20,421 nt of DNA from a virus. The notes under the pieces were generated by a model that was not told the origin of the DNA, did no database searches, and worked only from the letters and a program-made list of their open reading frames with translations. Where the stretch lies: IMG/VR virus record IMGVR_UViG_3300029267_001832, positions 1 to 20,421 of that record; one strand, given 5' to 3'. Positions 3,805-20,421 of this stretch are shown here, one piece after another. The stretch's first letter is position 1. Each line of letters opens with the position of its first letter. Both the position numbers and the translations under genes were made by a program.

Positions 3805-4506
3805 CTACGGCAAGACCATAACTGTGTCCGGTGCAGAGGTGTCGGGATCCCGGCGTTTCACCATGAAAGCGACACGGTTGTCGGTAGGCCGACGAGAGCC
3901 CTCGGCTTCGATCCGCTCGTAGCGACTGTGCCGGTGGAGATACCCGTGGACAGCGAGAGCGCACCCGTCCCAGTACCAATAGTCGTCGATGATGATGAGC
4001 CCGCCGGGATTGACGTACGGAAACAGTGACTCGAGCACCTCGGTGGTGGACGAGTACCAGTCACCGTCGAGGCGCAGCAGTGCGATGCCGTCCGGATACC
4101 CCTCGTCGCCGGGCAGCGTCTGGGAGAACCACCCGACGTGTGTGCGGTAGTTGTCGACACCGGCGAGCGCCATGGCTTCGATCGCCTTGTCCTCGGAGGC
4201 GGCGCAGTTGTGTCCCGTCACCGCTTGCCACTCCACCGCCGATTGACCGGACGGTGTGCCACCGTCGATGTCCTCAGCGGGCGGGAGTCCACGGAAACTG
4301 TCGAACAGGTGGTATCGGCGCTCGTTGCCGAGCAGGCTGGCGATACCGGCGATCATGCCGCCGCGCCAGACACCGCACTCAACGACGGCTCCTGGCACGT
4401 TGCGGGTCTCGAGTGCGAGCTCAAGGTTCGTCACGTACCGGCGCTCCTTCACCATGGAGTGCCGACGGAATCGCCGCCATACGTCATGCAGTGAGCTGTT
4501 CTTCAT
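3805..4506 (-). CDS. TylF-like SAM-dependent O-methyltransferase
   Basis: This 233-residue protein matches the TylF/macrocin O-methyltransferase family, which usually methylates sugar hydroxyls. Visible motifs are the SAM-binding VVECGVWRGG (residues 41-50), LFDSFRGLPP (67-76), LLRLDGDWYSST (143-154) and IIIDDYWYWDGC (171-182), whose Asp-Asp pair is the usual metal/catalytic site. The length is normal and the key motifs are intact, so it is probably active. Its ATG overlaps the stop of the preceding methyltransferase as ATGA. The pair sits between the protease fusion and the capsid gene, and the operon also carries two sugar-transferase-like genes. I therefore infer O-methylation of a phage-made glycan, perhaps on virion protein. 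The acceptor is not visible from the sequence. Confidence 0.8.
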   Translation of the reverse strand: MKNSSLHDVWRRFRRHSMVKERRYVTNLELALETRNVPGAVVECGVWRGGMIAGIASLLGNERRYHLFDSFRGLPPAEDIDGGTPSGQSAVEWQAVTGHNCAASEDKAIEAMALAGVDNYRTHVGWFSQTLPGDEGYPDGIALLRLDGDWYSSTTEVLESLFPYVNPGGLIIIDDYWYWDGCALAVHGYLHRHSRYERIEAEGSRRPTDNRVAFMVKRRDPDTSAPDTVMVLP

Positions 4507-5060
4507 TTGTCGGCCCGTCGCGTGACGGCCATTCGCCTACCGACCAGTTCCAGCCACGAGAGGCTGCCGTTCAGAACGAGACTGTCAACGGCAGACACAA
4601 CGCCGGGGAATCGGTCGTAGTAGTCGTCGAACACCACGGTGGCGTTGTCGGCCAGATGAACGTCCCAGGCCGTGAAGTCCCGCAGCACGGAGTCGTGCGT
4701 GTGTTCTCCGTCGATGTAGAGCAGGCCCACTTTCAGCCCGACCGTCCAGGTCGCTGCCGCGTCGGTGGACAGCGCCCGCTGAAACGTCGCACCTCGGGCG
4801 GTCTCCATCGCGATCTCCATGTCGCGGTGCCGGTAGCGGCGATGCATGTGCGGTCGCCCCTCATAAGCCCCCTCGAGCCCCCAGGAGTCGATGCCGAACA
4901 CCGGAGCGCCCAGACCCGCCGCTGCGCCCTCGACGATGACACGCAGCGACCCGCCCTGATAAACACCGATCTCCACGCAGGCCGTGTCGGAGGGCGTCTG
5001 AGCCGCGAGTTCTCTCAGACGTTCGAGCGCGACGATCTCGGTCAGCGTCTCGGTGTTCAT
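4503..5060 (-). CDS. class I SAM-dependent methyltransferase
   Basis: This 185-residue Rossmann methyltransferase belongs to the same broad group as cephalosporin hydroxylase/Methyltransf_24 proteins. The SAM site is CVEIGVYQGGS (residues 28-38), followed by FGIDSWG (55-61), LLYIDGEHTHDSVLRDF (113-129) and VVFDDYYDRF (142-151). The IDGEHxxxxVxxD and DD motifs are characteristic of small-molecule or sugar methyltransferases of this group rather than of DNA base methyltransferases; there is no DPPY or PCQ motif. The frame is open further upstream, but the ATG at 5060 overlaps the previous stop as ATGA and has GGAAGG 12 bases before it. It is coupled to the TylF-like gene by another ATGA. The two are similar in architecture and may act in sequence on one glycan; this is inference. 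Confidence 0.75.
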   Translation of the reverse strand: MNTETLTEIVALERLRELAAQTPSDTACVEIGVYQGGSLRVIVEGAAAGLGAPVFGIDSWGLEGAYEGRPHMHRRYRHRDMEIAMETARGATFQRALSTDAAATWTVGLKVGLLYIDGEHTHDSVLRDFTAWDVHLADNATVVFDDYYDRFPGVVSAVDSLVLNGSLSWLELVGRRMAVTRRADK

Positions 5061-5236
5061 CGCGGTCGAACAACCTTCCGTATCGTCCCGCCGCCTGCCT
5101 GACGAACCTCGACCTTGGCCTCGATCAGTGACAGAAACTCGGATGAGCTGGTGCCGTCTGGATAGGTGACGACGTAGCCGACCACTGTCACGCCGCTGGC
5201 GGCAGCACGACGACGGGCACCGCAACCGCAACCCAT
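5057..5236 (-). CDS. small conserved phage protein MGCGCG (DUF7196-like)
   Basis: This 59-residue protein begins MGCGCGARRR, continues with YVVTYPDGTSSSEFLSLIEA and ends AGGGTIRKVVRPR. The pattern of a Cys-rich start, 'V-YPDG', a helix of the 'EAK' type and 'GGG-I-RKV' matches a family of tiny actinophage proteins found near capsid genes (DUF7196, from memory). Function is unknown. The two N-terminal cysteines could bind metal or be acylated, but there is no lipobox or signal peptide. It overlaps both neighbours by ATGA, so it is translated as part of the head operon. Confidence 0.7.
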   Translation of the reverse strand: MGCGCGARRRAAASGVTVVGYVVTYPDGTSSSEFLSLIEAKVEVRQAGGGTIRKVVRPR

Positions 5237-8200
5237 CAGCGACGCGCCAACAGGTCGGCGATCTCCTCCGCCGGTGTCGGAGGACGAGTGATGCGCGAGG
5301 CCCGCTCGAGCAGCTCGGACTTCTCGGCTGCACGCTTCGCCTCGAGATCCGCGACGCGCGCTTCGCCGATCGCCTCCTTGACCGCTGCCTTGATCTCGTC
5401 GGCGGTAATGACCGGGGAGACGTCCTCGGCAACGTCCTCGTCGGTGGGGCCGAGTGACGCGACCAGGGCGATCGGACGCCCCTGCTCGTCGGAGCGGCCA
5501 CGGGCCGAGAACCCTGGCGTGTTCACGGCCAGCGCGGCAACCAGCTCGAGCCCCTGACCGAAGTCCCGCCAGTCGCCGGACAGTGGCGACGAGAGACCCT
5601 GCTCGATCTGGTCGGCGGTCGCCCACGGAGCCGCGACGCCGGAGAACCAGATGCCGTGATCGTCCTCGCCCACTCTGACCAGCGCGAAGCAGGTTCCCGT
5701 GTTGTCGTAGTGTGCCGCTGCCGCTCGGCCGCTCGCGCCGGGGCTGGCGTGACCGGTGCCGACGGTGAGACGTCCCACCGGAAGCCGCTCGCCGTTGTCG
5801 AGACGTACAGCCGGGCTGGTGTGGAAGTGCGCGTAGTTCGCCCGGCTGCGGGGAGCAATGACGCACTCGGTCTGAATCGACCGATGGCACTCACCGAAGC
5901 AGGCGAGGTGGCCGTAGATCCGGCCGTCGTCGCCCATCGTCGGAAGCGTCGGCCCCTCGAGCTGGGGATTCTGAAACAGCCGGTGGTCGTAGACGCGCGG
6001 GCGGAACTCCTCCGCTGCCGCCGCGACCAGTGCCACGTCGCGGGACTCGCGCTCCAGGTTCAGCGGCAGCGTGGTGTCGCCGAACGCCGGAGTCGCCACC
6101 AGCGTGGTGCCGATCAGCTCGGCCTCGGTGATCGTCATGAACACCTCACCGTCACTGTCCTCACTGATCTCGTTACCGTCGCGGTCGGTGACCACCCAGC
6201 TGGCCGCAGCGAGGTCGACACTGGGACGGGTCACGCCGTGCGCGAGCTGGTCCGCCGCCTCGTCGGCCTCGGCCGTGTTCAGCAGGTACCCCGACGCGAC
6301 GATCGTGTTGTCACGCTGCTCGGCGGACTCGATGACGCCGACGGTGTAGGCGCTGGTGTGCCCCTCAGCGCCCTGCTTCATCCACATGAGCGGAAGTGGA
6401 AACGCACGGAAGGTCAGAGTGATGTCCGACCGCAGCATTCGTCCGTCACTGGTCGGCGTGCCGATGAACGCCACGACGGCGTCGGTGAACGTGCGGAACT
6501 CTCCGTCGCTCATGATGTTCTCCTGTTCGGTCGGCGAGCTTGCTGTCATACTCTCAGCCAGCAGGGCAGGCGGCACGAAGCCGAGACCGGCCGGGTCCTC
6601 ACGAGCACGGATAATCCCCTGCCGCTGACGGTGAATGATCTCGTTCCGTTGAGCGGAGTTACGTCGCTGCTCGCGCGGAAGCGGCGCGTCGGGCGGGGCC
6701 ATGCCGACACGGCAGCGGCAGTTGCGGACCTCCTGAGACGGCCCACTCGGATCGCCGGGATACTCGAGCTCAGCACCGCCGACGAAGAACGGGTCCTCGA
6801 CTCTGGCCTTCTGACCGTCGGCCGCGAAGTGCGTGTGCCGAGTGCGGCGGTCCATGTGCGCGCACCAGACCTTGTCGAACTCGACGCCCGATGTTGACGC
6901 GGCGTTGAGCATCGCCTGGTTAATGATCCCTGCCGCTTGCAGACCGCTCTCACGAGCGACGTCACGGAACCGTTGGAAAAAGTCGGCAGCCGGGCGGGTC
7001 GGTCCCGGTTCGTAGATGTTCTCGTACGCCCGCTCCATCTGAGTGCCTTCGGACCAGTCTCCGCGTGATCGCGCCTTGGCGAGCTTGGCGGCGATCTCAC
7101 GAAGCCCCTCGGGGCCTCTGGGCATCAGCTCGTTGGTCCGAACGCTGCTGAAGGCGTCCACACCGGTACCGAGCCAGGCTCCGAGCTCGGCTCTAAGCTC
7201 CGAGATAGGTATGGCGCGGCGGCTGTTCTTGTTCGTGGTACCCACAAGCAGATCTCGTAGGCGGCTCGGTATGGACTTGCCTGCTGGAGGGTCGTAGGAG
7301 CCGAGGAACATCTCGAGTCGGCGACGGCTGCCGACCTGATCCCAGAGCAGGAGAGCCGCCATCTTGACCTGGTCGGGATCGGTGTCCCAGGCCAGTGCCG
7401 TCATGCGGGCAACAAGATCAAGACCGAGCCGCTGCTGCCCGGATCGGGGCGCTGTCGGTGCGGGCCAGTTGGCCTCAACCCACTTGGGCGAAGTGCGATC
7501 TTCGGTGTACGTGTTCGCGGCCGTCTGCTCGGGAAGGGCGTTACGGATCATCATGGTGCGGGGGAATAGGCGCTCGGGCTCGGGAGGTAGCTCACCGAAC
7601 GTCGGTCCTCCGAACTTCTCTGCCAGCGCACGGAAGGTCGCTTGCTTCTCGTGCATGTGCTCAAGCCATGTCGGGAAGTCCGATGACCAGTTGGCAGATG
7701 CGCCTGATGGCGAGATCCCCTTCGTGGTCGGCGGGGGATTCATGATCTGGTCGCGGATTCGAGCGGATCGCCGCTCATACTCCTCTGGGGAATACGGGCT
7801 GTGCACCCACCACTCGGCTAGTCCGTACGGGTTGTCAGGAGTACCGATCGGGATAGGCGCGCCGGTGCGAGGGTCCGTTGTCCACTTGATCTTCGCGGCA
7901 TCCTTGCGGCGCAGCTCTGCAAGCTGCTTCAGAGCCTCCTCGCGTTCCTCGGGTGTCGAGGGCGGGAGGTAGCCGGGATTACCCGGTATCTCCCACGGGG
8001 GACGATCGTCGTCAGGCTCGCCGTCAGCTGTCAGAGCTGGAACGGGACGAGTGTCCGACGCCAGATCCATGCACAGCACGTACGCGGTCTGAACGTAGGC
8101 GAAGCACCACATCATCGCCATCACGGGAATGACGCTCAGCTCGACGAGCTCGTCCCACAGGGCCTGCGCGTCCTCGGACACCAGAACATCGAGGTCGGGA

Positions 8201-12663: not shown

Positions 12664-13532
12664 GTCGCGGAGTCATCCACCTTGCGGTATTCGTCGCTCA
12701 GAATCTGTGGCACCGCGAACCGCCACAGGACTCGGTGGTGGATCCGCTGCGAGGAGCCCATGGGCGTAATGATGACGCACGACGGTGCCATCATGACGGT
12801 GTAGAACGACTTCAGATACGTGCCATTGTCGCGGTACACGTCGGACATGCCGCCGTCGTTCATCTGCGTCGGAGGCTGGTGCAGCTGAAAGCCGGTGTGC
12901 GTGAGCAGCAGCTCGCCACGGTTCCCCTGCGTGACGTACGTGTTCACGTCCTCGTTGATACGGCCGACGAACTCGACGGGACGGTCGGTGCGGATGAAGA
13001 AGCTGTTCATCGCCTTGCGGGCGAGCCCCCGCTGGAAGAACCCGCCTCGCTGTGTGCCGCTGATGTAGTCACCGCCCTGCGCGAAGGCGACGGTGAGGGC
13101 GTCGGTGTCGTCGAGAAACCGCAGGTAGTGGCAGATCACCTCGTCGAGGCTCTTGGTCATGATGTTCTTGAGCTCGTCGCCGATGTTGATTCGATGCGAG
13201 AAGTACGTGTAGTCGTCGTCGAGCTGAATGTGCCACTTCAGGCCGAGGTCGGCCGCGATCTTGCTGGCCGCGTTCCGCGCGTAGACGATCGTGCGCCGGT
13301 TGTCGGACTGGTCGGCGGTGTCGAAGGTCTTGGATATGGCGAGCTTGTCGAACTCGATGACCTGATCCCCGTACCGCTCACGGTACTGCGGGGCGGTCTC
13401 GTCCTCGTTGTCGATGACGATGTAGATCGGGCCGGTGTACCCGCGCTTACGGAGCGAGTTGTACGTGATGACACGGTCGGGCCTGCCATGCGTGAGGATC
13501 AGGGCCGCGAAGCCCTCGGGGACTCCGCTCAC
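12660..13532 (-). CDS. TET-associated-type glycosyltransferase (TAGT)
   Basis: This 290-residue GT-A-like enzyme matches the TET-associated glycosyltransferase family, first predicted in phages that hypermodify cytosine. Motifs in order are LILTHGRPDRV (11-21), YIVIDNEDE (37-45), FDKL (61-64), VYARNAA (83-89), QLDDDYTYF (103-111, the metal/sugar-nucleotide DxD), and INEDVNTY (192-199). The frame is open upstream to 13823, but I choose GTG at 13532: it overlaps the ParB-like stop as GTGA and has GAGGAG just before. It is translationally coupled to terminase. Known relatives transfer sugar to 5-hydroxymethylpyrimidine in DNA. No TET/JBP dioxygenase is visible here, so the target may be DNA, with the oxygenase elsewhere, or a virion protein. 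Confidence 0.75.
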   Translation of the reverse strand: MSGVPEGFAALILTHGRPDRVITYNSLRKRGYTGPIYIVIDNEDETAPQYRERYGDQVIEFDKLAISKTFDTADQSDNRRTIVYARNAASKIAADLGLKWHIQLDDDYTYFSHRINIGDELKNIMTKSLDEVICHYLRFLDDTDALTVAFAQGGDYISGTQRGGFFQRGLARKAMNSFFIRTDRPVEFVGRINEDVNTYVTQGNRGELLLTHTGFQLHQPPTQMNDGGMSDVYRDNGTYLKSFYTVMMAPSCVIITPMGSSQRIHHRVLWRFAVPQILSDEYRKVDDSAT

Positions 13533-14335
13533 AGCTCCTCCGGCTGTTCCTCGAGATCCTTCGAGAGCGTGTCGCGGAGCGCGTTGGTCAGCCGGACGTA
13601 GCCTTTCTTGATCGCGTGGTCGAAGTCGATCAGCACGAGTGCCTGATCCTCCATCAGCCGCTGGACCTCGGCGGGTGCGCTCGCGTAGTAGTCCGCGACC
13701 TTGTGAAAGTCGATGACGGTGTGCCGCTGCGCGGCACGGAGCAGGAACGCGGTCACGTCGTCGGGCAGCTTCGCCTTCGTGATGGCTTTCTCGAGCTCGA
13801 GTGTGCGGCTGACGTCCATGCACTCGGACAGGTCCGGCGGATCGTCGGTCGGCGTGTAGTGCGGGACCTCGGTCTTGTCGCTGTACTTCGGCGTCGTGTC
13901 GGAGGCCCGCTGAAGCTGGTCGATGTCGGCCTGCGTGTAGCTCAGCCCCTCGAGGTCGTCGCCCATGTCGTTGAGCAGAGACAGCAGCTCGTCGGTGTCG
14001 TAGCCGCCCAGCTGGGACGTGCGGTTGTCGACGAGCACGATCCGGTTGGCGCGGTCGTCGTCCACGTCGACCCAGTGAACGAGCATCGTGTCCCAGCCCT
14101 CGTCGGGATGCTGCTCGGCCAGGTCGCGGAACGCCATCAGTGTGTGGTTACCGGCGAGCACCTCGTTCTGCCGTCCGGTGTGCGTGCCGATGTTCACCAC
14201 GATCGGCTTGTACTGACCGTGCGCCCGCAGGCTGGCGGCGATGGCCTTGACGTCACCTCGTCTCGGATTCCGGTGGAACGTGGACAGGTCTTTGATCGGT
14301 ACCGAGGTCGTCGCCCCGGTCAGCGATGTGGTCAT
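13529..14335 (-). CDS. ParB-like nuclease-domain protein
   Basis: This 268-residue protein has a ParB/Srx-type N-terminal domain: HRNPRRGD (21-28), GQYKPIVVN (40-48), VLAGNHTLMAFRDL (59-72, the G-N-H-x-x-x-A box) and a following VDNRTSQLGGYD (102-113). The C-terminal part (about 185-255) is helical, with DFHKVADYYASAPAEVQRLMEDQALVLIDFDHAIKKGYV spanning its core, a segment I associate with phage ParB-like proteins near modification enzymes. The frame continues to 14404, but the ATG at 14335 starts just before the conserved domain; no strong ribosome site is seen for either. It is the first gene of the leftward operon and is coupled by GTGA to the glycosyltransferase. DNA binding, CTP-dependent clamping or nicking are family possibilities; the role here is unknown. 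Confidence 0.75.
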   Translation of the reverse strand: MTTSLTGATTSVPIKDLSTFHRNPRRGDVKAIAASLRAHGQYKPIVVNIGTHTGRQNEVLAGNHTLMAFRDLAEQHPDEGWDTMLVHWVDVDDDRANRIVLVDNRTSQLGGYDTDELLSLLNDMGDDLEGLSYTQADIDQLQRASDTTPKYSDKTEVPHYTPTDDPPDLSECMDVSRTLELEKAITKAKLPDDVTAFLLRAAQRHTVIDFHKVADYYASAPAEVQRLMEDQALVLIDFDHAIKKGYVRLTNALRDTLSKDLEEQPEEL

Positions 14336-14376
14336 ACGGGAAAGCGTAACCGACAATCGCTGGCCTGCTACGACGG

Positions 14377-14433
14377 TATGATAGAATGGATCCACGAGCG
14401 GCACGGAAGCCGCTCCCCACGGAAGGAACCGAC
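14377..14433 (+). promoter_or_regulatory. leader cassette copy 1: extended -10, hairpin, ribosome site
   Basis: TATGATAGAAT (14377-14387) contains TGA-TAGAAT, an extended -10 box. GAGCGGC (14396-14402) and GCCGCTC (14409-14415) form a 7-bp stem around ACGGAA. GGAAGGAACCGAC (14421-14433) leads directly to the ATG at 14434. The hairpin would begin about two bases after the predicted transcription start. No shared -35 box was found. Confidence 0.75.
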
Positions 14434-14781
14434 ATGCGAAACATCCAGCAAATCCCCCAGGCGATCCTCGGCGGCGTTGATCTCGGAAAGCTGAGCCGGG
14501 AGCAGCTGAAGGCTCACGTCATCGGCCTGCGACCCAGCCCCGTCGAGCACGCTCAGGTGCAGATCGCGTTTCAGATCGACGGTGCGCGGAAACGGGTCGA
14601 GGCCCAGCTCCAGCCGCTCGTGTTCGCGTCCGAGAACGAGGAGTCTCTGTGGCGCGAGGGTCTGCGCGACGAGGGTCTGTCCGACGAGCAGATCGACCTG
14701 ATCGCCGCCGGGCAACCGGTGCCGGGTCTGGGTCGCGAGTGGCAGCCCATCGCACTGCTCGAGGCCGAGGGTCGGTGGTGA
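14434..14781 (+). CDS. hypothetical protein, first gene of the rightward module
   Basis: This soluble protein of 115 residues does not match any family I recognise. The first third is helical (IPQAILGGVDLGKLSREQLKAHVIGL), the middle resembles two strands (AQVQIAFQIDGARKRVEAQLQPLVF), and the end is acidic and helical (ESLWREGLRDEGLSDEQIDLI). The reading frame extends 48 bases upstream, but ATG at 14434 is chosen because GGAAGGAACCGAC precedes it, as in two other units. It is the first gene after the divergent control region. The next gene starts within its stop codon (GTGA). Confidence 0.75.
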   Translation: MRNIQQIPQAILGGVDLGKLSREQLKAHVIGLRPSPVEHAQVQIAFQIDGARKRVEAQLQPLVFASENEESLWREGLRDEGLSDEQIDLIAAGQPVPGLGREWQPIALLEAEGRW

Positions 14782-14936
14782 CCATGAACCGCCCCACCGC
14801 CGCCAGCCCGGAGCAGATGCGGAACCGGTTGGAGCTGCGCCGTAGTAATGCGGCCCAGCCCCACCGGAACCGCAAGGCCGAGGCGAAGAAGCCGGGCAAG
14901 GGTAACCGCAACAACTGGAAGCGAGAGGTCCGATGA
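14778..14936 (+). CDS. small basic protein
   Basis: This 52-residue, strongly basic protein contains PEQMRNRLELRRSNAAQPHR followed by NRKAEAKKPGKGNRNNWKREVR. It has no hydrophobic segment or cysteines; the composition suggests binding to nucleic acid or to an acidic protein. The GTG at 14778 overlaps the previous stop as GTGA and has GAGGG six bases upstream; the ATG at 14784, two codons later, is an alternative. Its stop overlaps the next start as ATGA. The unbroken overlap chain is the main argument that it is a real gene. Confidence 0.65.
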   Translation: MTMNRPTAASPEQMRNRLELRRSNAAQPHRNRKAEAKKPGKGNRNNWKREVR

Positions 14937-15409
14937 ACCGCTTCGTTCTGCACGCCGACCCGTTCGTCGCCGCTCGGATGCACTGCGACAAGCACGTCGT
15001 CAAGATGATCCTCGAAGAAGCCCAGATGCTGAGCACCGTGCAGCGGGCGCACGGCAATGAGGACGACCGGCTGTATCGGGCCACGCATCGGCACCACCCC
15101 TGCACCGTGTGGGCCGGTGAGAGCGTCGAGAACTATCGGTGGGCGTGGCTCCTCCTGTGCGCCCTGCTGCGTGAGTACGAGTACCGGTACGGCCGCGTCC
15201 ACCTCACGTCACGGCTGCGCGACCTGCTGGCAGACCCGCCCGCCGATCTGCCGAGTCGCGGACTGACGCCGTTCCCGCAAGCGATGCCGGAGCAGTTTCG
15301 GGGCGACGACCCGGTGGCTGCGTACCGCCGGTTCTACCTCCTCGACAAGGTTCGGTTCGCTCGGTGGACCCGCAGGTCAGCACCGGAATGGTGGACCGCC
15401 GTCGCCTGA
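14933..15409 (+). CDS. conserved phage protein of the HCDKHVVKM family
   Basis: This 158-residue protein belongs to a widespread phage family recognisable by HCDKHVVKMILEEAQML (17-33), HPCTVWAGESVENYRWAWLLLCALLREYEYRYGR taken in pieces (about 55-88), and a C-terminal RFYLLDKVRFARWTRR then PEWW. Relatives in T4-like, cyanophage and actinophage genomes are usually left hypothetical. Some databases link them to pyrimidine-dimer glycosylases (from memory, weak). The conserved His, Cys, Lys and Trp residues suggest an enzyme. The ATG overlaps the previous stop as ATGA. The stop codon lies in the loop of a terminator-like hairpin just ahead of leader copy 2. Confidence 0.7.
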   Translation: MNRFVLHADPFVAARMHCDKHVVKMILEEAQMLSTVQRAHGNEDDRLYRATHRHHPCTVWAGESVENYRWAWLLLCALLREYEYRYGRVHLTSRLRDLLADPPADLPSRGLTPFPQAMPEQFRGDDPVAAYRRFYLLDKVRFARWTRRSAPEWWTAVA

Positions 15410-15416
15410 GACGGCG
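15397..15416 (+). terminator. terminator-like hairpin at the end of the first rightward unit
   Basis: CGCCGTC (15397-15403) pairs perfectly with GACGGCG (15410-15416) around GCCTGA, which includes the TGA stop at 15407-15409. The next base begins the TATGATAGAAT of leader copy 2, so the hairpin separates two transcription units. It lacks a U-tract. Confidence 0.5.
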
Positions 15417-15476
15417 TATGATAGAATGGTACTAGCGTCCGGCACTGAAGCCCGGACCCAACGGAAGGAACCGAGA
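15417..15476 (+). promoter_or_regulatory. leader cassette copy 2: extended -10, hairpin, ribosome site
   Basis: TATGATAGAAT (15417-15427) is identical to copy 1. The hairpin is GTCCGGC (15437-15443), loop ACTGAA, GCC, one bulged C (15453), then GGAC (15454-15457). GGAAGGAACCGAGA (15463-15476) leads into the ATG at 15477. The stem bases differ from copy 1 but still pair, and the loop again fits A-N-N-N-A-A. Confidence 0.75.
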
Positions 15477-15689
15477 ATGACCGCAAACAAGCTGAGCCTC
15501 GTCAAGGTCGCCCCGCTGACCTGGACGGTCGGGGCCGGATCGCTGCACCACCACTACGTCGTTCGGAAGGTCTCGGGAGTGTTCGAGGTTCACCGCCGCG
15601 ACGCTCGCGGAGTGACCCGCATCGGCACCGCCCACACCGTACCCAGCGTCAAGCAGCTGATCGCCGACCACGAAGGGACGTGGAACTGA
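15477..15689 (+). CDS. hypothetical protein, 70 residues
   Basis: This is a small, probably strand-rich protein: KLSLVKVAPLTWTVGAG, then LHHHYVVRKVSGVFEVHRRD, then a C-terminal helix VPSVKQLIADHEGTWN. The alternation of hydrophobic residues suggests a compact single-domain fold in which the C-terminal helix packs on a sheet, somewhat like small phage-encoded inhibitors, but I recognise no family. The ATG at 15477 follows GGAAGGAACCG of leader copy 2; the upstream in-frame Met lies inside the leader. The stop shares bases with the next start (TGATG). Confidence 0.7.
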   Translation: MTANKLSLVKVAPLTWTVGAGSLHHHYVVRKVSGVFEVHRRDARGVTRIGTAHTVPSVKQLIADHEGTWN

Positions 15690-15856
15690 TGGCGACGATG
15701 CTGGGCGACCGCACCAAGCACAAGCTCCCCTGGTCGCAGTGCGACTGCGGGTGCCGTGCCGGAAGCCGGAGCCGCAAGGCCGAGCGCCGCATTCAGCGCA
15801 AGGTCGAGAAGCTGGAAGTCCGTCGTCAGATCGAGGTGGAGCGGAGCGAGTCATGA
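15689..15856 (+). CDS. small protein with a CDCGC cluster
   Basis: This 55-residue protein starts MATMLGDRTKHKLPWSQ, has a tight cysteine cluster C-D-C-G-C at residues 18-22, and ends in a long basic/acidic helix (RSRKAERRIQRKVEKLEV then RRQIEVERSES). Three cysteines in five residues suggest metal binding or a redox site; the helix suggests a coiled coil. It is supported as a gene by a TGATG junction with the gene before and an ATGA overlap with the gene after. No family is recognised. Confidence 0.65.
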   Translation: MATMLGDRTKHKLPWSQCDCGCRAGSRSRKAERRIQRKVEKLEVRRQIEVERSES

Positions 15857-16536
15857 CCACACCGTTCAGCTCCACCGCCCGCCCCGCCTCGTTCGCACCA
15901 CGGAAGGGACCGATGAACAAGCGCGAGCAGTTCCTCAACCACGTGTTCGGCAACGGCTGGATGCCCGACACCACTCGGCAGGTCCGTTCGGGCGACGGGC
16001 TGGTGCAGGACCCTCACGCGTTCGTGCGGGAGTCCCAAACCGGGCCGGACTGGAAGCTCCGGCTGGACTTCACCGACGCTAACGGATACCTGAGCACCAA
16101 GCTGCGCGGCGTGCTCCTGTTCCGCGAGGGCGAGGAGAAACTGCGCCTGCTCCCGCAAAGAGACTGGAGCCACAACCGCGTGCTCTGGGAGGTCACCGGA
16201 CGAGACCTCGAGCCCGGCTGGCGGGAGGTCGCCCTGCGGCCCCGCGCCGAGCGCATGGTCGAGGACCCTGATCTGTGCGCCTGGCTGGCCGCCGAGCAGC
16301 TGTGGACCGAGCGGGTCGAGTTCGAGGCCCGCGAGAAAGCCCGCATCCACGAGCAGAAGCAGCGGCGGAAGCCGCCGCAGGGCCTGGCTGTGGAACGGCA
16401 CGTCTGGGACCGGCGAGCGGATGCTGTGCTGTCCGCCGCTCGGAAGCTCTATCGGATCGACGGTCTGAGTGACACCGCCGCACTGATGGACGACCTGCGG
16501 AAGGCGGTCGCCCAGCTCGAGGAGTCCCTGTCGTGA
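15853..16536 (+). CDS. hypothetical protein, 227 (or 207) residues
   Basis: I do not recognise this soluble protein. It has aromatic and charged stretches such as DWKLRLDFTDANGYLSTKLRGVLLF in two pieces, EEKLRLLPQRDWSHNRVLWEVTGRDLEPGW, a charged helix (AAEQLWTERVEFEAREKARIHEQKQRRK) and a C-terminal helical bundle-like end (DAVLSAARKLYRIDGLSDTAALMDDLRKAVAQLEESLS). Two starts compete. The ATG at 15853 overlaps the preceding stop as ATGA and has GGAG six bases before. The ATG at 15913 (giving MNKREQFLNHVFG) has the leader-type ribosome site CGGAAGGGACCG right before it. I list the longer form; the residues between the two are low complexity, so the shorter form is quite possible. Confidence 0.7.
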   Translation: MTTPFSSTARPASFAPRKGPMNKREQFLNHVFGNGWMPDTTRQVRSGDGLVQDPHAFVRESQTGPDWKLRLDFTDANGYLSTKLRGVLLFREGEEKLRLLPQRDWSHNRVLWEVTGRDLEPGWREVALRPRAERMVEDPDLCAWLAAEQLWTERVEFEAREKARIHEQKQRRKPPQGLAVERHVWDRRADAVLSAARKLYRIDGLSDTAALMDDLRKAVAQLEESLS

Positions 16537-16550
16537 CTCCTCCGAATCGT

Positions 16551-16567
16551 CCCGCGCACCGCGTGGG
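16551..16567 (+). terminator. possible short terminator hairpin
   Basis: CCCGCGC and GCGTGGG (16551-16557 with 16561-16567) can form seven pairs, including one G-T, around a three-base loop. It lies in the 70-base gap after the preceding gene. A 23-codon frame also spans this gap (16533-16604), so the hairpin is only tentatively a terminator. Confidence 0.35.
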
Positions 16568-16606
16568 TCAGCAGTACCCAACTACACCGAAAGCAGGTAT
16601 CTGAAC

Positions 16607-16930
16607 ATGAAGGTCACCATCCGCCCCGACGGCTCGATGGAGCTGGACGTCGCCAACGGAGACGGGCAGGCCGCACTGGACCTGATCCGCTCGCTTCAGG
16701 GCAGCACGACGACACCGCCGAAACGGCAACCGAACGATCCGGCAGCGTTGACACCGGAGCAGCGGAAAACGTACGACGTGCTGGCCGCTCATCCCAGCGG
16801 GTGCCATTACACCGTGGTCGCGGAGTACCTCGATGTGTCGAAGTCCGTCGCCAACAGCCGGTGCAACTACCTGGCCGGTATCGGGTACGCGGAGCGCATC
16901 CGCTCCGGTGTCTATCGGGTGGTCTCATGA
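16607..16930 (+). CDS. winged-helix DNA-binding protein
   Basis: This 107-residue protein has two parts. Residues 1-35 form a small strand-rich start (MKVTIRPDGSMELDV then GDGQAALDLIRSLQG). Residues about 48-107 resemble a winged helix-turn-helix: LTPEQRKTYDVLAAHPSG is the first helix, YTVVAEYLDVSKSVANSRCNYLAGIG the helix-turn-helix, and YAERIRSGVYRVV the wing. Such domains occur in small phage regulators. The ATG at 16607 has only a weak upstream purine stretch (AAGCAGG). It overlaps the membrane-protein gene by ATGA. It lies between leader copies 2 and 3, so it is a candidate regulator of that cassette, though this is only proximity. Confidence 0.65.
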   Translation: MKVTIRPDGSMELDVANGDGQAALDLIRSLQGSTTTPPKRQPNDPAALTPEQRKTYDVLAAHPSGCHYTVVAEYLDVSKSVANSRCNYLAGIGYAERIRSGVYRVVS

Positions 16931-17100
16931 CCGCCCTCACCGTGGTCCCGCTGCTCCTGTCTCTGCTCGGAACCGTGATGCTGTGGCGGCAGACGGTGCG
17001 CGGCGACGCCGACACCCACTGGACCGACATGTGGGCGGTGCTGGCCCTGGCACCCCTCATGTTCTTCATCGTGGCGCAGGTCATCGGGTCCGTACCATAG
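16927..17100 (+). CDS. small membrane protein, two predicted segments
   Basis: This 57-residue protein has hydrophobic segment LTVVPLLLSLLGTVMLW (residues 4-20), a polar loop RQTVRGDADTHWTDM, and a second hydrophobic segment WAVLALAPLMFFIVAQVIG (36-54). The size and hairpin topology are compatible with a holin, a superinfection-exclusion protein or another membrane effector; nothing in the sequence decides. The ATG overlaps the winged-helix gene stop as ATGA, so the two are co-translated. It is the last gene before leader copy 3. Confidence 0.7.
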   Translation: MTALTVVPLLLSLLGTVMLWRQTVRGDADTHWTDMWAVLALAPLMFFIVAQVIGSVP

Positions 17101-17119
17101 CCCGCCCGGCTAGCCCACA

Positions 17120-17175
17120 TATGATAGAATCATTCCAAGCGGCAACCAAGCCGCCCCGACCGGAAGGAACCGACA
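17120..17175 (+). promoter_or_regulatory. leader cassette copy 3: extended -10, hairpin, ribosome site
   Basis: TATGATAGAAT (17120-17130) is identical to the other copies. GCGGC (17139-17143) and GCCGC (17150-17154) enclose AACCAA. GGAAGGAACCGACA (17162-17175) precedes the GTG start at 17176. The -10 to ribosome-site distance (42 bases) matches copies 1 and 2 (44 and 46). The 30 bases upstream show no conserved -35 box. Confidence 0.75.
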
Positions 17176-17586
17176 GTGAGCAAGATCAAGTACACGACGA
17201 AGCCCGGAGAGTACGCCCTCGAGTACATCGCCGATCACGGCAGCCTGCGGATCAATATCGACAAGACCGCGCCGGAGTACCTGCCGTGGTGCGTGTTCAT
17301 CACCGAGCACAACGGCCCGAACCACGTCGAGGCGACGGAGTCGCGGACGGTGCTCCACACCTATGCCCAGACCCTGACAAGGGCGAAGGAGCTGGCGCAG
17401 GACTACGTGGACACCCATCCTCAAGGGCAGTCGGCGGAGGACCGCTACCGCGACAGGCTCCCTGACATGCCGGACCTCGACCTGCTGGCCGATCTGGCGA
17501 GCGCCACTCGTCAGAACAAGTACGGAAGCCACGGTGACCAGATCGCCATGCTGGAGGCCGAGATCCTGCGACGGATGCAGAACTGA
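17176..17586 (+). CDS. hypothetical protein, 136 residues
   Basis: This soluble acidic protein begins MSKIKYTTKPGEYALEYIADHGSLRINI in two short strand-like pieces. It continues with LPWCVFITEHNGPNHVEATESRTVLHTY, a helix QTLTRAKELAQDYVDTH, a polar linker, and ends in helices LDLLADLASATRQ and QIAMLEAEILRRMQN. An N-terminal sheet plus C-terminal helices is plausible, but no family is recognised. The GTG start is fixed by leader copy 3, whose GGAAGGAACCGACA directly precedes it. A hairpin follows the stop. It appears to be a single-gene transcription unit. Confidence 0.72.
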   Translation: MSKIKYTTKPGEYALEYIADHGSLRINIDKTAPEYLPWCVFITEHNGPNHVEATESRTVLHTYAQTLTRAKELAQDYVDTHPQGQSAEDRYRDRLPDMPDLDLLADLASATRQNKYGSHGDQIAMLEAEILRRMQN

Positions 17587-17598
17587 GTCGCGCTTGGC

Positions 17599-17624
17599 GG
17601 CACCGTGCCTCTCAGCCCGGTGCC
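17599..17624 (+). terminator. terminator-like hairpin after the 136-residue gene
   Basis: GGCACCG (17599-17605) pairs with CGGTGCC (17618-17624) around a 12-base loop, starting 12 bases after the stop. The remaining bases to 17695 hold no recognised promoter. The next gene has its own GAGGAAC ribosome site. Confidence 0.45.
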
Positions 17625-17695
17625 TGCCAGTGAGCCACTCAGCTCCCCCACGGCGGGGCCAGCCGAACCAACCGAGTAGTGAGGAACACCCCACC

Positions 17696-18778
17696 ATGAC
17701 CGAACAGGTCGCAGGAAACACCACCCCGGACGACGGCACACTGACCATCGTCACCGGGGACGAGGAGAACCCCCGAGAGCTGATCGTCCCCCCGCCCGGT
17801 GTGCGGCAGGACGCCTTCCACGCGCTCGGCACCGAGATCCCCGAGGGTCTCGACACCGCTGAGGCGCTCGAGTACGCCAACATGGCGAACTGGAACGTCC
17901 GCAAGGAGCAGCTCACCGCCGTCGTGTACGAGGACGGCATCCGCAACGAGGTCCAGGTGCCGAACAGCCACGCGGTGATCCGCACCTCGCCGTTCACGCA
18001 CAAGGCCGAGGTGCTGGGCATCGTCGGCAACCGGTGGACCCCGTTCCAGAACGAGGCCGTGGCCGGTGTCATGGACAACATCACCGCGATGTCCGGCGCT
18101 CGGCTCAAGACCGCGCTCGTGCTGAACGGTGGCCGCAAAACGGGACTGGTCATGGAGATGCCCGAGGGCATGACCTTCACCAGCCCGGTGACCGGGGCGA
18201 AGGACGTGACGAAGCTGAACCTCGTCCTGTTCAACAGCCACGACGCCAGCTCCGCTCTGAGCGCGGTGTTGACGCCGATCCGCCTGTTCTGCGCCAATCA
18301 GCAGCGCATGGCGGAGAGCACCGCGACGAGCCGGTTCATGCTGCGGCACACCGGCGAGGAGTCGATTCGTATGGCACAGCTGGAGGAACTGCTCACCGAG
18401 TCGTTCAGCTATCAGGACGTGTTCACCCGTCAGGTCCAGGCGATGATCGACCGGAGCCTCGACGAGGAGCTGGCCCGGATCGAGCTGGAGCATCTGTTCC
18501 ACGCCAAGGACGTGGACCTGACCGAGCGGCAGCGCGAGCTGCGTCAGCAGACGGTGGACTCGGTGTTCAGCCTCTACATGGGATCGGAGACAGTGGCTCC
18601 GTTCCGTGGCACCGCGTACGGAATCTACAACGCGGTGACCGAGTACACCGACCACGTTGCACGGGTGATCGTGCCGGACGGTGACAACGAGCGCAACGTG
18701 CGCGCGATGCGGACGCTCGAGTCCGCCGGACTGGACGACCTGAAGGCCCGCGCCTTCGATCAGCTGGTCCCCGCCTGA
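17696..18778 (+). CDS. DUF932-type phage/plasmid protein
   Basis: This 360-residue protein matches the DUF932 (TIGR03299) family found in phages and plasmids, whose biochemical role is not established. Supporting features are FHALGTEIPEGLDTAEAL near the start, WNVRKEQLTAVV, SHAVIRTSPFTHKAEVLGIVGNRWTPFQNEA (as consecutive pieces), LNLVLFNSHDASSALSAVLTPIRLFCANQQRMA, then a helical C-terminal half ending GTAYGIYNAVTEYTDHVAR. The frame is open upstream to 17534, but ATG at 17696 is preceded by GAGGAAC about nine bases before and follows the previous terminator. It is closed by a 12-bp terminator hairpin, so it is probably its own unit. The length is normal for the family. Confidence 0.82.
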   Translation: MTEQVAGNTTPDDGTLTIVTGDEENPRELIVPPPGVRQDAFHALGTEIPEGLDTAEALEYANMANWNVRKEQLTAVVYEDGIRNEVQVPNSHAVIRTSPFTHKAEVLGIVGNRWTPFQNEAVAGVMDNITAMSGARLKTALVLNGGRKTGLVMEMPEGMTFTSPVTGAKDVTKLNLVLFNSHDASSALSAVLTPIRLFCANQQRMAESTATSRFMLRHTGEESIRMAQLEELLTESFSYQDVFTRQVQAMIDRSLDEELARIELEHLFHAKDVDLTERQRELRQQTVDSVFSLYMGSETVAPFRGTAYGIYNAVTEYTDHVARVIVPDGDNERNVRAMRTLESAGLDDLKARAFDQLVPA

Positions 18779-18785
18779 CCGGAGC

Positions 18786-18813
18786 GCCCCGCCCGTGGAG
18801 ACACGGGCGGGGC
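18786..18813 (+). terminator. strong terminator, 12-bp perfect stem with GAGA tetraloop
   Basis: GCCCCGCCCGTG (18786-18797) pairs perfectly with CACGGGCGGGGC (18802-18813) around the tetraloop GAGA, eight bases after the DUF932 stop. The run after it is CTTCC rather than a U-tract. It is the strongest hairpin in the window. Confidence 0.8.
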
Positions 18814-18853
18814 CTTCCACCCCTCTGACCACACCACACGAAAGCATGGAGAC

Positions 18854-19471
18854 ATGACCCACTTCACGATCACGGTGGCCCTGCCGGGAGACACCGACAG
18901 AGGCGACATCGAGGCGGCACTGCAAACCGCGATGGAACCGTATTACGAGGAGCTGAACGTCGAGCCGTATGTCCGGTACACCGCTCAGGACATCGTCGAG
19001 GACACGCAGTACCAGCTGTATCGGATTCAGCACCCGAACATCACGCCGGAGGACTGGTTCGGTGGAGAGCTGGACGAGGACGGGAACATCGTCAGCACCT
19101 ACAACCCGGACAGCCAGTGGGACTGGTATGTCATCGGTGGGCGATGGGGCGGGCACTGGACGATCAAACAGGAGTACGCGTACACGGCGGCGAAGGGTCT
19201 GACCGAGCCAAGCAGCTTCGGGCACTCCGAGCACGCCGCCGATCCCCGTCGTGTGGACGTGGCACGGATCGGTCAGCTCGAGCCGGAGTCGCTGGACCCC
19301 ACCTTCGCACTCATCACGCTCGAGGGCGAGTGGCGCGAGAGCGGCACCGTTCTGTGGTTCGGCCAGTCTCGCGACGAGAAGAATCAAGCCGTCTGGGAGG
19401 CGGAGTACCTGTGCTGGATATCCTCGCTGCCCGCCGACACCTGGGTCGTCCTCGTCGACGCCCACATCTGA
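18854..19471 (+). CDS. conserved phage hypothetical protein with WDWYVIGGRWGG motif
   Basis: This 205-residue, acidic, Trp-rich protein begins with MTHFTITVALPGDTDRGDIEAAL, an RRM-like strand-helix start, and has the motif NPDSQWDWYVIGGRWGG (about 84-100). I associate that motif with a family in actinophage and actinobacterial genomes that lacks a known function. The C-terminal half is ALITLEGEWRES, VWEAEYLCWISS, and DTWVVLVDAHI, suggesting an alpha-beta fold. The ATG follows GGAGAC directly after the terminator of the DUF932 gene. A regulatory or sensor role is possible but there is no direct evidence. Confidence 0.72.
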   Translation: MTHFTITVALPGDTDRGDIEAALQTAMEPYYEELNVEPYVRYTAQDIVEDTQYQLYRIQHPNITPEDWFGGELDEDGNIVSTYNPDSQWDWYVIGGRWGGHWTIKQEYAYTAAKGLTEPSSFGHSEHAADPRRVDVARIGQLEPESLDPTFALITLEGEWRESGTVLWFGQSRDEKNQAVWEAEYLCWISSLPADTWVVLVDAHI

Positions 19472-19475
19472 GACG

Positions 19476-19595
19476 ATGACCGACCTCGAGCTCGAGATGC
19501 TCACCACTCCGAAGATCGACCCGCTGACCGACCCGCTGCTCCACGTCGACCCGTCCTGCCCCCTGTGGGACCGTCTGATGGACGAACTCCGATGA
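19476..19595 (+). CDS. very small protein, 39 residues
   Basis: This short acidic frame reads MTDLELEMLTTPKIDPLTD then PLLHVDPSCPLWDRLMDELR. There is no membrane segment or motif. It fills the four-base-spaced gap after the preceding gene, and its stop overlaps the next start as ATGA, which is the main evidence that it is translated. No convincing ribosome site precedes the ATG, so coupling to the upstream gene would be needed. Confidence 0.5.
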   Translation: MTDLELEMLTTPKIDPLTDPLLHVDPSCPLWDRLMDELR

Positions 19596-19831
19596 TCGGT
19601 GTGGTGGTGGGCCTGCTGATCGCACTGTCTCCTGCGGACGATCGCTTGGACGACTACGCGCGCGACAACAAAGTCATGGTCTGCTACCTGCTGGACAAGC
19701 ATTCGGGTCCGGCAACGCAGCAGGAACTGGCGACGCGCATGACCGACTCCGACGCCCTGGCTGTGATGCGGTGGGCCGTGGAGAACTACTGCCCGCGCAA
19801 TCGGGCCACTCTCGAAGGGCTGACATCATGA
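19592..19831 (+). CDS. small probably secreted protein (DUF732-like pattern)
   Basis: This 79-residue protein begins MIGVVVGLLIALSPADD, a likely signal peptide or membrane anchor ending near residue 15. The mature part has VCYLLDKHSGPATQQELATRM and AVMRWAVENYCP, with two cysteines about 40 residues apart. The spacing and the final A-V-x-x-Y-C-P recall DUF732-type small secreted proteins of actinobacteria; the match is by eye. The cysteines would likely form a disulfide outside the membrane. It is linked by ATGA overlaps to both neighbours. A host-envelope target is possible. Confidence 0.6.
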   Translation: MIGVVVGLLIALSPADDRLDDYARDNKVMVCYLLDKHSGPATQQELATRMTDSDALAVMRWAVENYCPRNRATLEGLTS

Positions 19832-19923
19832 CAACGCCGCGAGGTCTCGAGATCACGTTGTGGACGACGGGTATCGTCGCCGCGTTCGGGCTCGCCTTCC
19901 TACTGCTTGGGGCTCGCTCGTGA
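19828..19923 (+). CDS. 31-residue single-pass membrane peptide
   Basis: MTTPRGLEITLWTTGIVAA continues into FGLAFLLLGARS, giving one hydrophobic helix (about residues 9-28) with polar ends. It overlaps the previous stop as ATGA and the following GTG start as GTGA, so it is a link in an unbroken chain of tiny genes. Such peptides occur in phage lysis cassettes, but function cannot be assigned. Confidence 0.5.
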   Translation: MTTPRGLEITLWTTGIVAAFGLAFLLLGARS

Positions 19924-20090
19924 GCGCGAAGCTGTACCTCTGCCGAGGGTCGAACGAGATCGGAGCAGCCAGACAGGACGCGGTGGGCTGGTGCCGGTGG
20001 TGCAAAAAGATCGTGCGGGCACGTGTGGGGACAGGACGACTGATTCGGCACACGACGGCGATCAAGTCACAGGGAAGCGAGGAGCTGTGA
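19920..20090 (+). CDS. small possible zinc-binding protein
   Basis: This 56-residue basic protein is MSAKLYLCRGSNEIGAARQ followed by DAVGWCRWCKKIVRARV and a tail with RLIRHTTAIKSQGSEEL. Cysteines at 8, 25 and 28 (the last two as CRWC), plus His 45, could form one zinc site. The GTG start overlaps the previous stop (GTGA); the stop runs into the next start as TGATG. The composition suggests nucleic-acid binding. No family is recognised. Confidence 0.55.
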   Translation: MSAKLYLCRGSNEIGAARQDAVGWCRWCKKIVRARVGTGRLIRHTTAIKSQGSEEL

Positions 20091-20284
20091 TGCGGTCTCC
20101 CCTCGAGATCACCGTGAGTGTCGATCGTGAGACACAGAGCGTCGTGGTCGCCTTCGGGCCGATGGATGCCGGAGACGTGGCCCATCTGGTCGACCACATC
20201 GCCCATCACCACGAGTCGTTTCGCGAGACGCTGGTGGATCATGTCGCGGACGCCGTCATGCAAGCTCAGGACACGGTCACATGA
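20090..20284 (+). CDS. small acidic protein, last gene of the rightward module
   Basis: This 64-residue protein has a strand-like beginning (LEITVSVDRETQSVVVAFG) and a helical end (AGDVAHLVDHIAHHHESF then RETLVDHVADAVMQAQ), rich in His and Asp. No family is recognised. The ATG shares bases with the previous stop (TGATG), with GAGGAG nearby upstream. Its last 19 bases overlap the 3' end of the leftward cell-wall hydrolase gene on the other strand, so the two are convergent. Confidence 0.6.
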   Translation: MRSPLEITVSVDRETQSVVVAFGPMDAGDVAHLVDHIAHHHESFRETLVDHVADAVMQAQDTVT

Positions 20285-20421
20285 ACATGGTCGTAATGGG
20301 CCGGTGCCTGCCAGATCGTGTAGACGACACCGAAGCGGCCTCGCTGCGACAGGACGTCGGCGTTGATCGTGTTGCCCAGCGCAGTGTTGCCTCCGACCAT
20401 CACGTCGATGGCCCGGCCGGA
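20266..20421 (-). CDS. C-terminus of a cell-wall hydrolase, probable endolysin (partial)
   Basis: Reading the minus strand from the right edge gives 51 codons ending at a TGA (20266-20268). The protein contains SGRAIDVMVGGNTALGNTI, then FGVVYTIWQAPAHYD and finally HVHVTVS. The G-R-A-I-D-V-M motif and the closing D-H-V-H-V match the metal-ligand pattern of M15/VanY-like peptidase folds and the ARB_07466/VldE-type domain found in actinophage endolysins and tail lysins. The D in AID and the H in HVH would be zinc ligands. The gene begins beyond the window, so full domain make-up and the choice between endolysin and tail-associated lysin cannot be decided. Confidence 0.75.
   Translation of the reverse strand, partial: SGRAIDVMVGGNTALGNTINADVLSQRGRFGVVYTIWQAPAHYDHVHVTVS

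What the first reader, a model, noticed from the sequence alone, without database searches (positions are those of the whole stretch)
14377..17175. Three-copy leader: extended -10, 5'-terminal ANNNAA hairpin, identical ribosome site
Seen directly: TATGATAGAAT occurs at 14377, 15417 and 17120. Each is followed by a short hairpin (14396-14415, 15437-15457, 17139-17154) and by GGAAGGAACCGA before the start codon. The stem bases vary but keep pairing (copy 2 even has a bulge), while the loop stays A-N-N-N-A-A closed by GGC/GCC. That is compensatory variation, suggesting the RNA fold matters. If TAGAAT with its TGn extension is the -10 box, the hairpin begins about two to four bases from the RNA 5' end. 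It may protect the mRNA, bind a phage protein, or coordinate a regulon of small genes.
Basis: partly seen in the sequence, partly recalled or inferred. Interest (0 to 1): 0.78.

Follow-up and report, generated by a model that had tools for sequence, protein, structure and literature searches.

The report
Phage promoter-linked mRNA 5' hairpin leaders
A virus related to phages of Mycobacterium and Gordonia puts the same small control module in front of three genes (a promoter, an RNA hairpin at the likely start of the message, then a ribosome site that can sit in a second tiny hairpin), and related viruses use the same layout with different letters, possibly to keep short viral messages stable and well translated.

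Summary
Three copies alone cannot test compensation. Relatives show the layout is a group trait: in cluster-B-type mycobacteriophages and Gordonia phages I found 138 curated elements in 41 loci with -35, -10, a GC hairpin about 5 nt into the predicted transcript, ribosome site and start codon. The hairpin is spaced tightly from the -10 box and loosely from the start codon, so it belongs to the 5' end. Its outer pairs covary across relatives; within genomes the signal is modest. A model built from relatives does not find the window copies (E 1.2, 3.9, none): layout and, for copy 1, map position are shared, not the family sequence (GGC/GCC and 6-nt loop instead of GGG/CCC and 5 nt). New here: the Shine-Dalgarno can lie in the loop of a second small hairpin, whose stems compensate strongly within genomes among minus-strand genes of five Gordonia phages (0 of 4000 shuffles), but not in all relatives, and untestably in the window. 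Best reading: a module that shields the mRNA 5' end and keeps the ribosome site open; the mechanism is inferred. Closest published kind: cluster K SAS/ESAS, which differs. New variant of a known kind.

The parts
14377..14387 (+). copy 1 promoter box TATGATAGAAT (extended -10: TGA-TAGAAT); predicted +1 about 14394 (A)
   Evidence: exact repeat; +1 inferred from spacing only
14396..14415 (+). copy 1 5' hairpin GAGCGGC-ACGGAA-GCCGCTC
   Evidence: -13.4 kcal/mol, z -3.9
14420..14431 (+). copy 1 Shine-Dalgarno mini-hairpin CGG-AAGGAA-CCG
   Evidence: weak alone (-1.4 kcal/mol)
14434..14781 (+). gene behind copy 1, 115 aa, no Pfam or PHROG match, no match in phage records at E 0.01; divergent from the ParB-like gene
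15417..15427 (+). copy 2 promoter box; predicted +1 about 15434 (A)
   Evidence: +1 inferred
15437..15457 (+). copy 2 5' hairpin with one bulged C, loop ACTGAA
   Evidence: -9.6 kcal/mol, z -2.0
15462..15473 (+). copy 2 Shine-Dalgarno mini-hairpin CGG-AAGGAA-CCG
15477..15689 (+). gene behind copy 2, 70 aa, no Pfam or PHROG match, no match in phage records at E 0.01
15901..15912 (+). fourth Shine-Dalgarno element CGG-AAGGGA-CCG, without promoter box or 5' hairpin, before gene 15913-16536
   Evidence: (1 mismatch at 15902)
17120..17130 (+). copy 3 promoter box; predicted +1 about 17137 (A)
   Evidence: +1 inferred
17139..17154 (+). copy 3 5' hairpin GCGGC-AACCAA-GCCGC
   Evidence: -9.6 kcal/mol, z -4.4
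17161..17172 (+). copy 3 Shine-Dalgarno mini-hairpin CGG-AAGGAA-CCG
17176..17586 (+). gene behind copy 3, 136 aa, GTG start, unknown (PHROG 33247 at 1.3e-5; weak match in phage Serendipitous)

Best explanation
Each copy is a self-contained expression module for a small right-arm operon. A host-sigma-type promoter starts an RNA whose first structured element, 2-3 nt (window) or about 5 nt (relatives) from the predicted 5' end, is a GC hairpin; then comes the Shine-Dalgarno in the open loop of a second small hairpin, then the start codon. Shown: the layout, its recurrence, its anchoring to the promoter, covariation of the 5' hairpin across relatives, strong compensation of the Shine-Dalgarno stem among minus-strand genes of five Gordonia phages. 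Inferred: the transcription start; that the 5' hairpin works as RNA and shields the 5' end from end-dependent decay (RppH, RNase E or RNase J entry); that the second hairpin keeps the ribosome site single-stranded and free of competing structure. The conserved loop start (A) may also be read by a protein; that is not shown.
For: Three intact copies. The simple layout scan gives 155 distinct hits in 134 loci against 16 in reversed sequence and 31 with the hairpin spacing shifted. A -35 box of at least 4 of 6 lies at 16-18 nt in 108 of 138 elements, against 9-34 at six control offsets. In genomes with three or more elements the within-genome sd is 0.98 nt for -10 to hairpin and 2.99 nt for hairpin to start. 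Covariation in 42 relatives: 10 cells changed on both sides against 3.1 shuffled, 0 of 500; slid controls give 0 or 1 cells. Within Obutu the -10 to hairpin distance runs over 4 nt (13-17), which suits an RNA element better than a regulator needing fixed DNA phasing (inference). Shine-Dalgarno stems, leaders in genomes with two or more: within-genome permutation 267.5 against 238.8 sd 6.2, 0 of 2000; one genome per group 168.5 against 143.2 sd 5.4, 0 of 2000; 72 minus-strand genes of 5 Gordonia phages 180.5 against 148.2 sd 6.6, 0 of 4000. Precedent: in E. coli a 5' hairpin stabilises mRNA and impedes RppH; in B. subtilis a hairpin, ribosome site or protein near the 5' end stabilises (PMC3997798, passages; the aprE 5' stem-loop by reference title only). 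No U-run follows the hairpins, and the terminator scan finds none there.
Against: No RNA 5' end, half-life or expression data exist here. Within-genome compensation of the 5' hairpin is only modest, and G.U departures do not clearly exceed A.C at pair 6 (10 and 8). Loop positions 2 and 4 are mostly C and G (98 and 109 of 132), which is symmetric about the dyad as a DNA site would be. In the relatives about 5 unpaired nt are predicted before the stem, while B. subtilis RppH needs only two and prefers three or more (PMC3997798, passage), so shielding there is doubtful. The relatives' model does not find the window copies. The Shine-Dalgarno stem is identical in the three window copies, so untested there, and weak (-1.4 kcal/mol). 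It is not significant in most single genomes, among Gordonia plus-strand genes (686 of 4000) or Obutu genes (361 and 318 of 4000), and falls below expectation in KayaCho minus-strand genes (z -2.0).
Confidence: 0.42

Rival explanations
1. The inverted repeat is a double-stranded DNA operator in the initially transcribed region, bound by a phage regulator that sets the promoters; the RNA fold is incidental.
For: Tight spacing to the -10 box; arms GGCGGG/CCCGCC almost fixed in many genomes; loop C2 and G4 symmetric about the dyad; other dyads (CCCG..CGGG) visible in the -35/-10 spacer of many relatives. Pope et al. 2011 prefer DNA binding for cluster K ESAS repeats (PMC3203893, passage).
Against: Both-side changes within genomes that keep pairing (Obutu GGCGGG to GCCGGG; JAMaL A-U, G.U, G-C; MossRose A-U, G.U, G-C, though also one A.C); loop A1 in 121 of 132 with T5 in only 7 of 132, not symmetric; distance to the -10 box varies by up to 4 nt within Obutu.
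Confidence: 0.27
2. The hairpin is a binding site for a phage or host RNA-binding protein, either an antitermination site near the 5' end (boxB-like 5-bp stem and 5-nt loop) or a translational switch.
For: Loop not free: A1 121 of 132, C2 98, G4 109; one module per operon; window loops ACGGAA and ACTGAA match A-C-N-G-A plus A, the third (AACCAA) does not.
Against: Loops vary within Gordonia phages (AGGTA, AGACA, ACAGA, ACGGA in Ligma); hairpin to start distance is loose, which does not suit a simple ribosome block. A boxA-like element was not looked for.
Confidence: 0.2
3. Chance: three similar promoters with GC-rich palindromes typical of a 65% GC phage.
For: Short stems in GC-rich DNA are common; copy 2 is only z -2.0, and whole leaders of copies 2 and 3 are z -1.2 and -1.7.
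Against: 155 hits against 16 and 31 in controls; 11 of 12 whole phage records carry 3-15 model matches, 80 of 85 on the minus strand (all 11 had given sequences to the model).
Confidence: 0.05

Closest known systems
[quoted passage not shown] 2011, PMC3203893; Adephagia 2024, PMC11373665; Yasnaya_Polyana 2025, PMC12699233)
   Same: Repeated element over the ribosome site of right-arm genes, sometimes with an upstream promoter and inverted repeat; the window also has one ribosome element without promoter (15901-15912). The outer letters of SAS (GGG...CCC) also flank the Shine-Dalgarno.
   Different: The 13-bp SAS consensus is not at the window leaders; the authors found that ESAS repeats do not generally support RNA pairing, whereas the relatives' hairpins here mostly do; in parts of three cluster K genomes each of 9 non-exact SAS sites loses at least one of the three pairs (one of them has a both-side change that keeps a pair), unlike the Gordonia stems.
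5' stem-loop leaders of cluster B (Bclasvirinae) and Sourvirus-type phages, found here (model R1)
   Same: Order promoter, 5' hairpin, ribosome site, start; copy 1 sits in the corresponding place, divergent from the ParB-like gene.
   Different: Window has GGC/GCC, a 6-nt loop and an extended -10 without a visible -35; R1 scores are not significant.
5' mRNA-stabilising stem-loops such as ompA, papA and aprE leaders (review PMC3997798, passages and reference titles)
   Same: Hairpin close to the predicted 5' end followed by a ribosome site.
   Different: No stability measured; here repeated before many phage operons with a conserved loop start.
Lambda-type boxB (nut) hairpins (recalled, no call)
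   Same: About 5 bp and 5-nt loop near the 5' end of phage transcripts.
   Different: No GNRA-type loop, no boxA sought, a ribosome site follows at once.

Membership tests
R1 leader family (cluster B and Sourvirus-type phages) | -10, hairpin, Shine-Dalgarno, start in that order and spacing | tested here: met
   (copies 1 and 3 found by the layout scan, with TATGAT taken as -10; copy 2 missed because of its bulge)
R1 leader family (cluster B and Sourvirus-type phages) | closing GGG/CCC and 5-nt loop A-N-N-N-N | tested here: not met
   window has GGC/GCC and 6-nt loops
R1 leader family (cluster B and Sourvirus-type phages) | significant score to the covariance model built without the window | tested here: not met
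   17119: 8.0 bits, E 1.2; 14376: 6.3 bits, E 3.9; copy 2 absent; four other places score higher
R1 leader family (cluster B and Sourvirus-type phages) | leader divergent from the ParB-like gene | tested here: met
   copy 1; in 9 of 12 records an R1 match lies within about 220 bases of the right end; 8 of these 9 are listed with the ParB-like gene at the left end (Ligma not in the rows shown)
Cluster K SAS | 13-bp GGGATAGGAGCCC with at most 2 deviations at gene starts | tested here: not met
   with up to 3 mismatches 6 sites in the window, 5.96 expected, none at the leaders
Cluster K ESAS | 17-bp imperfect inverted repeats with a SigA-like promoter | tested here: not met
   no ungapped inverted repeat of 8 or more in the 121 bases around each copy (the 5-7 bp hairpin arms are below that limit)
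5' mRNA stabiliser (ompA/aprE type) | hairpin within a few nt of the mapped 5' end | not testable with these tools
   5' end inferred from the -10 box only
5' mRNA stabiliser (ompA/aprE type) | longer mRNA half-life conferred by the hairpin | not testable with these tools
   needs experiment
Rfam families | match at gathering score | tested here: not met
   0 matches in the window; with relaxed limits in 14300-17700 only a microRNA model far below its cut-off, away from the leaders

The most novel reading that the evidence does not exclude
These phages mark their own messages with a two-part 5' code, a terminal hairpin and a Shine-Dalgarno held in a hairpin loop, read by a phage or host factor so that phage messages outlive and out-translate host messages; the two parts evolve separately (5' hairpin conserved largely in letters, ribosome stem of the Gordonia phages conserved only in pairing).
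Probability: 0.15. Interest if true: 0.75.

Novelty: new variant of a known kind. Interest (0 to 1): 0.52.

Why it matters
Mycobacteriophage promoters are poorly defined (stated in PMC11373665, passage). A promoter-anchored 5' hairpin, in some phages with a loop-presented ribosome site, with 3-15 model matches per genome in 11 of 12 phages examined, gives a ready system to test how RNA structure controls mRNA life and translation in mycobacteria and Gordonia, predicts transcription starts for many unknown small genes, and could serve as a compact expression part for these hosts.

Tried and rejected
Exact whole-leader patterns in viral contigs and bacterial genomes: apart from the near-identical strain L004, the viral hits read as chance by eye; the 2 genome hits are in Marinilabiliales and Sulfurimonadaceae MAGs and were judged by title only.

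Intrinsic terminator or attenuator: no U-run after the hairpins; 1 terminator-like site in 14200-20421, elsewhere and on the other strand.

A phage RNase E story: relatives carry a gene annotated 'RNase E', but the 6 such proteins tested show only helix-turn-helix-type or weak families in Pfam and no RNase E family among the rows shown, so I dropped it.

G.U against A.C asymmetry as proof of RNA: tried, not decisive (10 and 8 at pair 6; in the listing six of the A.C cells are from Ligma, whose stems are 5 bp).

SAS as a Shine-Dalgarno loop hairpin: tested in parts of three cluster K genomes (Anaya, Kratio, Pixie; plus strand only); 37 exact sites say nothing, and each of 9 non-exact sites loses at least one pair, so pairing is not supported there. 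Some of the 9 (up to 4 mismatches) may be chance.

Dropped rows: 8 of 146 elements were removed by hand before the counts (unrelated loci or coding hits). One search counted with a register search that misplaced L185 and L211; it is superseded. One search used 141 elements before that curation. In these regex-based sets the inner three pairs were required, so only pairs 4 and outward test pairing. Elements of closely related phages are not independent. In one search, 23 of 95 minus-strand Gordonia starts had no usable GGA core and were left out.
Full report
What is there. The window is a 20,421-base viral fragment. Its left part carries minus-strand structural and packaging genes (portal-type by similarity; terminase by PHROGs) and a ParB-like gene (13532-14344, minus); from 14434 the genes discussed run on the plus strand. 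DNA and protein searches place it beside Gordonia phages (Evaa, Sour, MossRose) and Bclasvirinae mycobacteriophages. Its own host is not known. All letters and coordinates in the finding are correct.

Is it more than chance? TATGATAGAAT with up to 2 mismatches gives only the three exact sites, expected 0.49. Each is followed by a hairpin, the identical 12-mer and a start codon. A fourth 12-mer (one mismatch, 15902) stands before gene 15913 without promoter box or hairpin. If TAGAAT with its TGn extension is the -10 box, +1 falls on A in all three copies (14394, 15434, 17137) and 2-3 nt precede the stem; this is inference. If TATGAT were the -10 box, the distance to the stem (13-14 nt) would fit the relatives too.

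Relatives. Upstream regions in MossRose, Evaa, Sour and Acadian showed the same order by eye. A simple script found it across named phages and in 134 loci (155 distinct hits; 16 in reversed sequence, 31 with shifted spacing; some hits in unrelated loci are plainly chance; copy 2 of the window is missed because of its bulge). A second scan that fixes only the inner three pairs gave 146 elements, 138 in 41 loci after I removed 8 by hand. A -35 box of at least 4 of 6 lies 16-18 nt before the -10 box in 108 of 138, against 9 to 34 at six control offsets. In genomes with three or more elements the within-genome sd is 0.98 nt for -10 to hairpin and 2.99 nt for hairpin to start: the hairpin is tied to the 5' end.

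Whole records. A covariance model from 42 relatives without the window (R1) finds 85 matches in 11 of 12 phage records, 80 on the minus strand; NTR1 has none. All 11 records with matches had given sequences to the model, NTR1 had not. Obutu's two strong plus-strand matches precede plus-strand genes. Mid-genome matches also head minus-strand genes, for example Obutu gp22 inside the structural region, Obutu gp45-43 and Evaa gp40-38 with helix-turn-helix genes. In 9 of 12 records a match lies within about 220 bases of the right end, next to the ParB-like gene if the genome is joined end to end; copy 1 of the window has that place.

Is the window a member by sequence? R1 gives 8.0 bits (E 1.2) for copy 3, 6.3 bits (E 3.9) for copy 1 and nothing for copy 2; four other places in the window score higher. 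So layout and place are shared, the letters are not: the closing pair is C-G instead of G-C and the loop has six bases.

RNA or DNA? For R1: 98.4% standard pairs against 94.2% shuffled and covariation 0.142 against 0.064, 0 of 500 for each; further pair types 4 against 2.1 (2 of 500); pairs changed on both sides 2 against 1.1 (70 of 500); 4 of 6 pairs never vary; a slide of +3 reaches a score of 0.084. Relatedness inflates such counts, as the tool warns. Within-genome permutation, which controls for lineage, gives 390 against 379.0 sd 4.7 Watson-Crick pairs (264 of 20000), one genome per group 200 against 193.3 sd 3.9 (1220 of 20000; with G.U 648 of 20000); the window alone cannot be tested (6642 of 20000). 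Non-standard cells: pair 4, 4 of 138; pair 5, 6 of 138; pair 6, 18 of 138. G.U and A.C at pair 6 are 10 and 8. Loop position 1 is A in 121 of 132, 2 is C in 98, 4 is G in 109, 5 is T in only 7. I read this as favouring RNA, not proving it.

The second hairpin. Folding the window leaders showed the Shine-Dalgarno in the loop of CGG-AAGGAA-CCG in all three. In Gordonia relatives the flanking stems change and stay paired: MossRose GGG/CCC, GTCC/GGAC, GACC/GGTC; Evaa GATCC/GGATC; NHagos TGATCT/GGATCA, GGGG/CCCC. Permuting the parts within genomes (leaders in genomes with two or more): 267.5 against 238.8 sd 6.2, 0 of 2000; one genome per group 168.5 against 143.2 sd 5.4, 0 of 2000. Single genomes below 5%: MossRose 25, Evaa 33, Ligma 30 and L187 31 of 1000; the others tested are not, and the window is uninformative (identical stems). 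Over annotated starts: Gordonia minus-strand genes (72 of the 95 listed have a usable GGA core) 180.5 against 148.2 sd 6.6, 0 of 4000; plus-strand genes (26) not significant (686 of 4000); Obutu minus 361 and plus 318 of 4000; KayaCho minus below expectation (3963 of 4000). So this is well supported for the five Gordonia phages taken together, compatible but untested for the window, and not supported in Obutu and KayaCho. Arms that differ from gene to gene within one genome do not suit a DNA operator.

How it most likely works. A host-type promoter yields a short leader that begins with a hairpin and presents the ribosome site in a loop. A 5' hairpin impedes RppH in E. coli, and a hairpin or ribosome site near the 5' end stabilises mRNA in B. 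subtilis (PMC3997798, passages). The same review says B. subtilis RppH needs two unpaired 5' nucleotides and prefers three or more; the window's predicted 2-3 would suit shielding better than the relatives' 5 or so.

Known or new? SAS/ESAS of cluster K are the nearest published kind (PMC3203893, section 15 part 1 of 2 and passages; PMC11373665, passages; PMC12699233, passages and section 21). Pope et al. state that ESAS repeats do not generally support RNA pairing; in my test non-exact SAS sites do not compensate; the window leaders carry neither the SAS consensus nor an ESAS-length inverted repeat. Rfam has no match. Paper searches (listings) and the passages read showed no description of these leaders in cluster B or Gordonia phages; the library lacks most subscription papers, so this is not proof of novelty.

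Noticed in passing
L091:2509-3105, L086:2050-2763, L084:7119-7763, L083:5788-6390, L095:1484-2068, L088:835-1551: Genes annotated 'RNase E' in cluster-B-like phages match only helix-turn-helix-type or weak Pfam families; the label looks doubtful.
   Followed up: partly
relatives, for example L089, L095, L180: A dyad of the form CCCG..CGGG lies between -35 and -10 in many mycobacteriophage leaders, a possible regulator site; not seen in that form by eye before the window's leaders.
   Followed up: no
window 14933-15409: Protein of PHROG 624 ('DNA binding protein'; the best hits in phage records, in Acinetobacter phages, are partly annotated putative endonuclease V) downstream of copy 1.
   Followed up: no
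window 17618-17630 and 20302-20314: CGGTGCCTGCCAG occurs exactly twice (0.02 expected), the second near the contig end, where a minus-strand reading frame ends in HYDHVHVTVS (peptidase-like by eye).
   Followed up: partly
window 3805-5501: Two methyltransferase-like reading frames on the minus strand (by eye, no search) among the structural genes.
   Followed up: no
L207, L209, L211, L236: IMG/VR contigs with divergent versions of the leader (GGGGG/CCCCC, G.U-containing stems, 4-nt loops) that would help a wider covariation test.
   Followed up: partly
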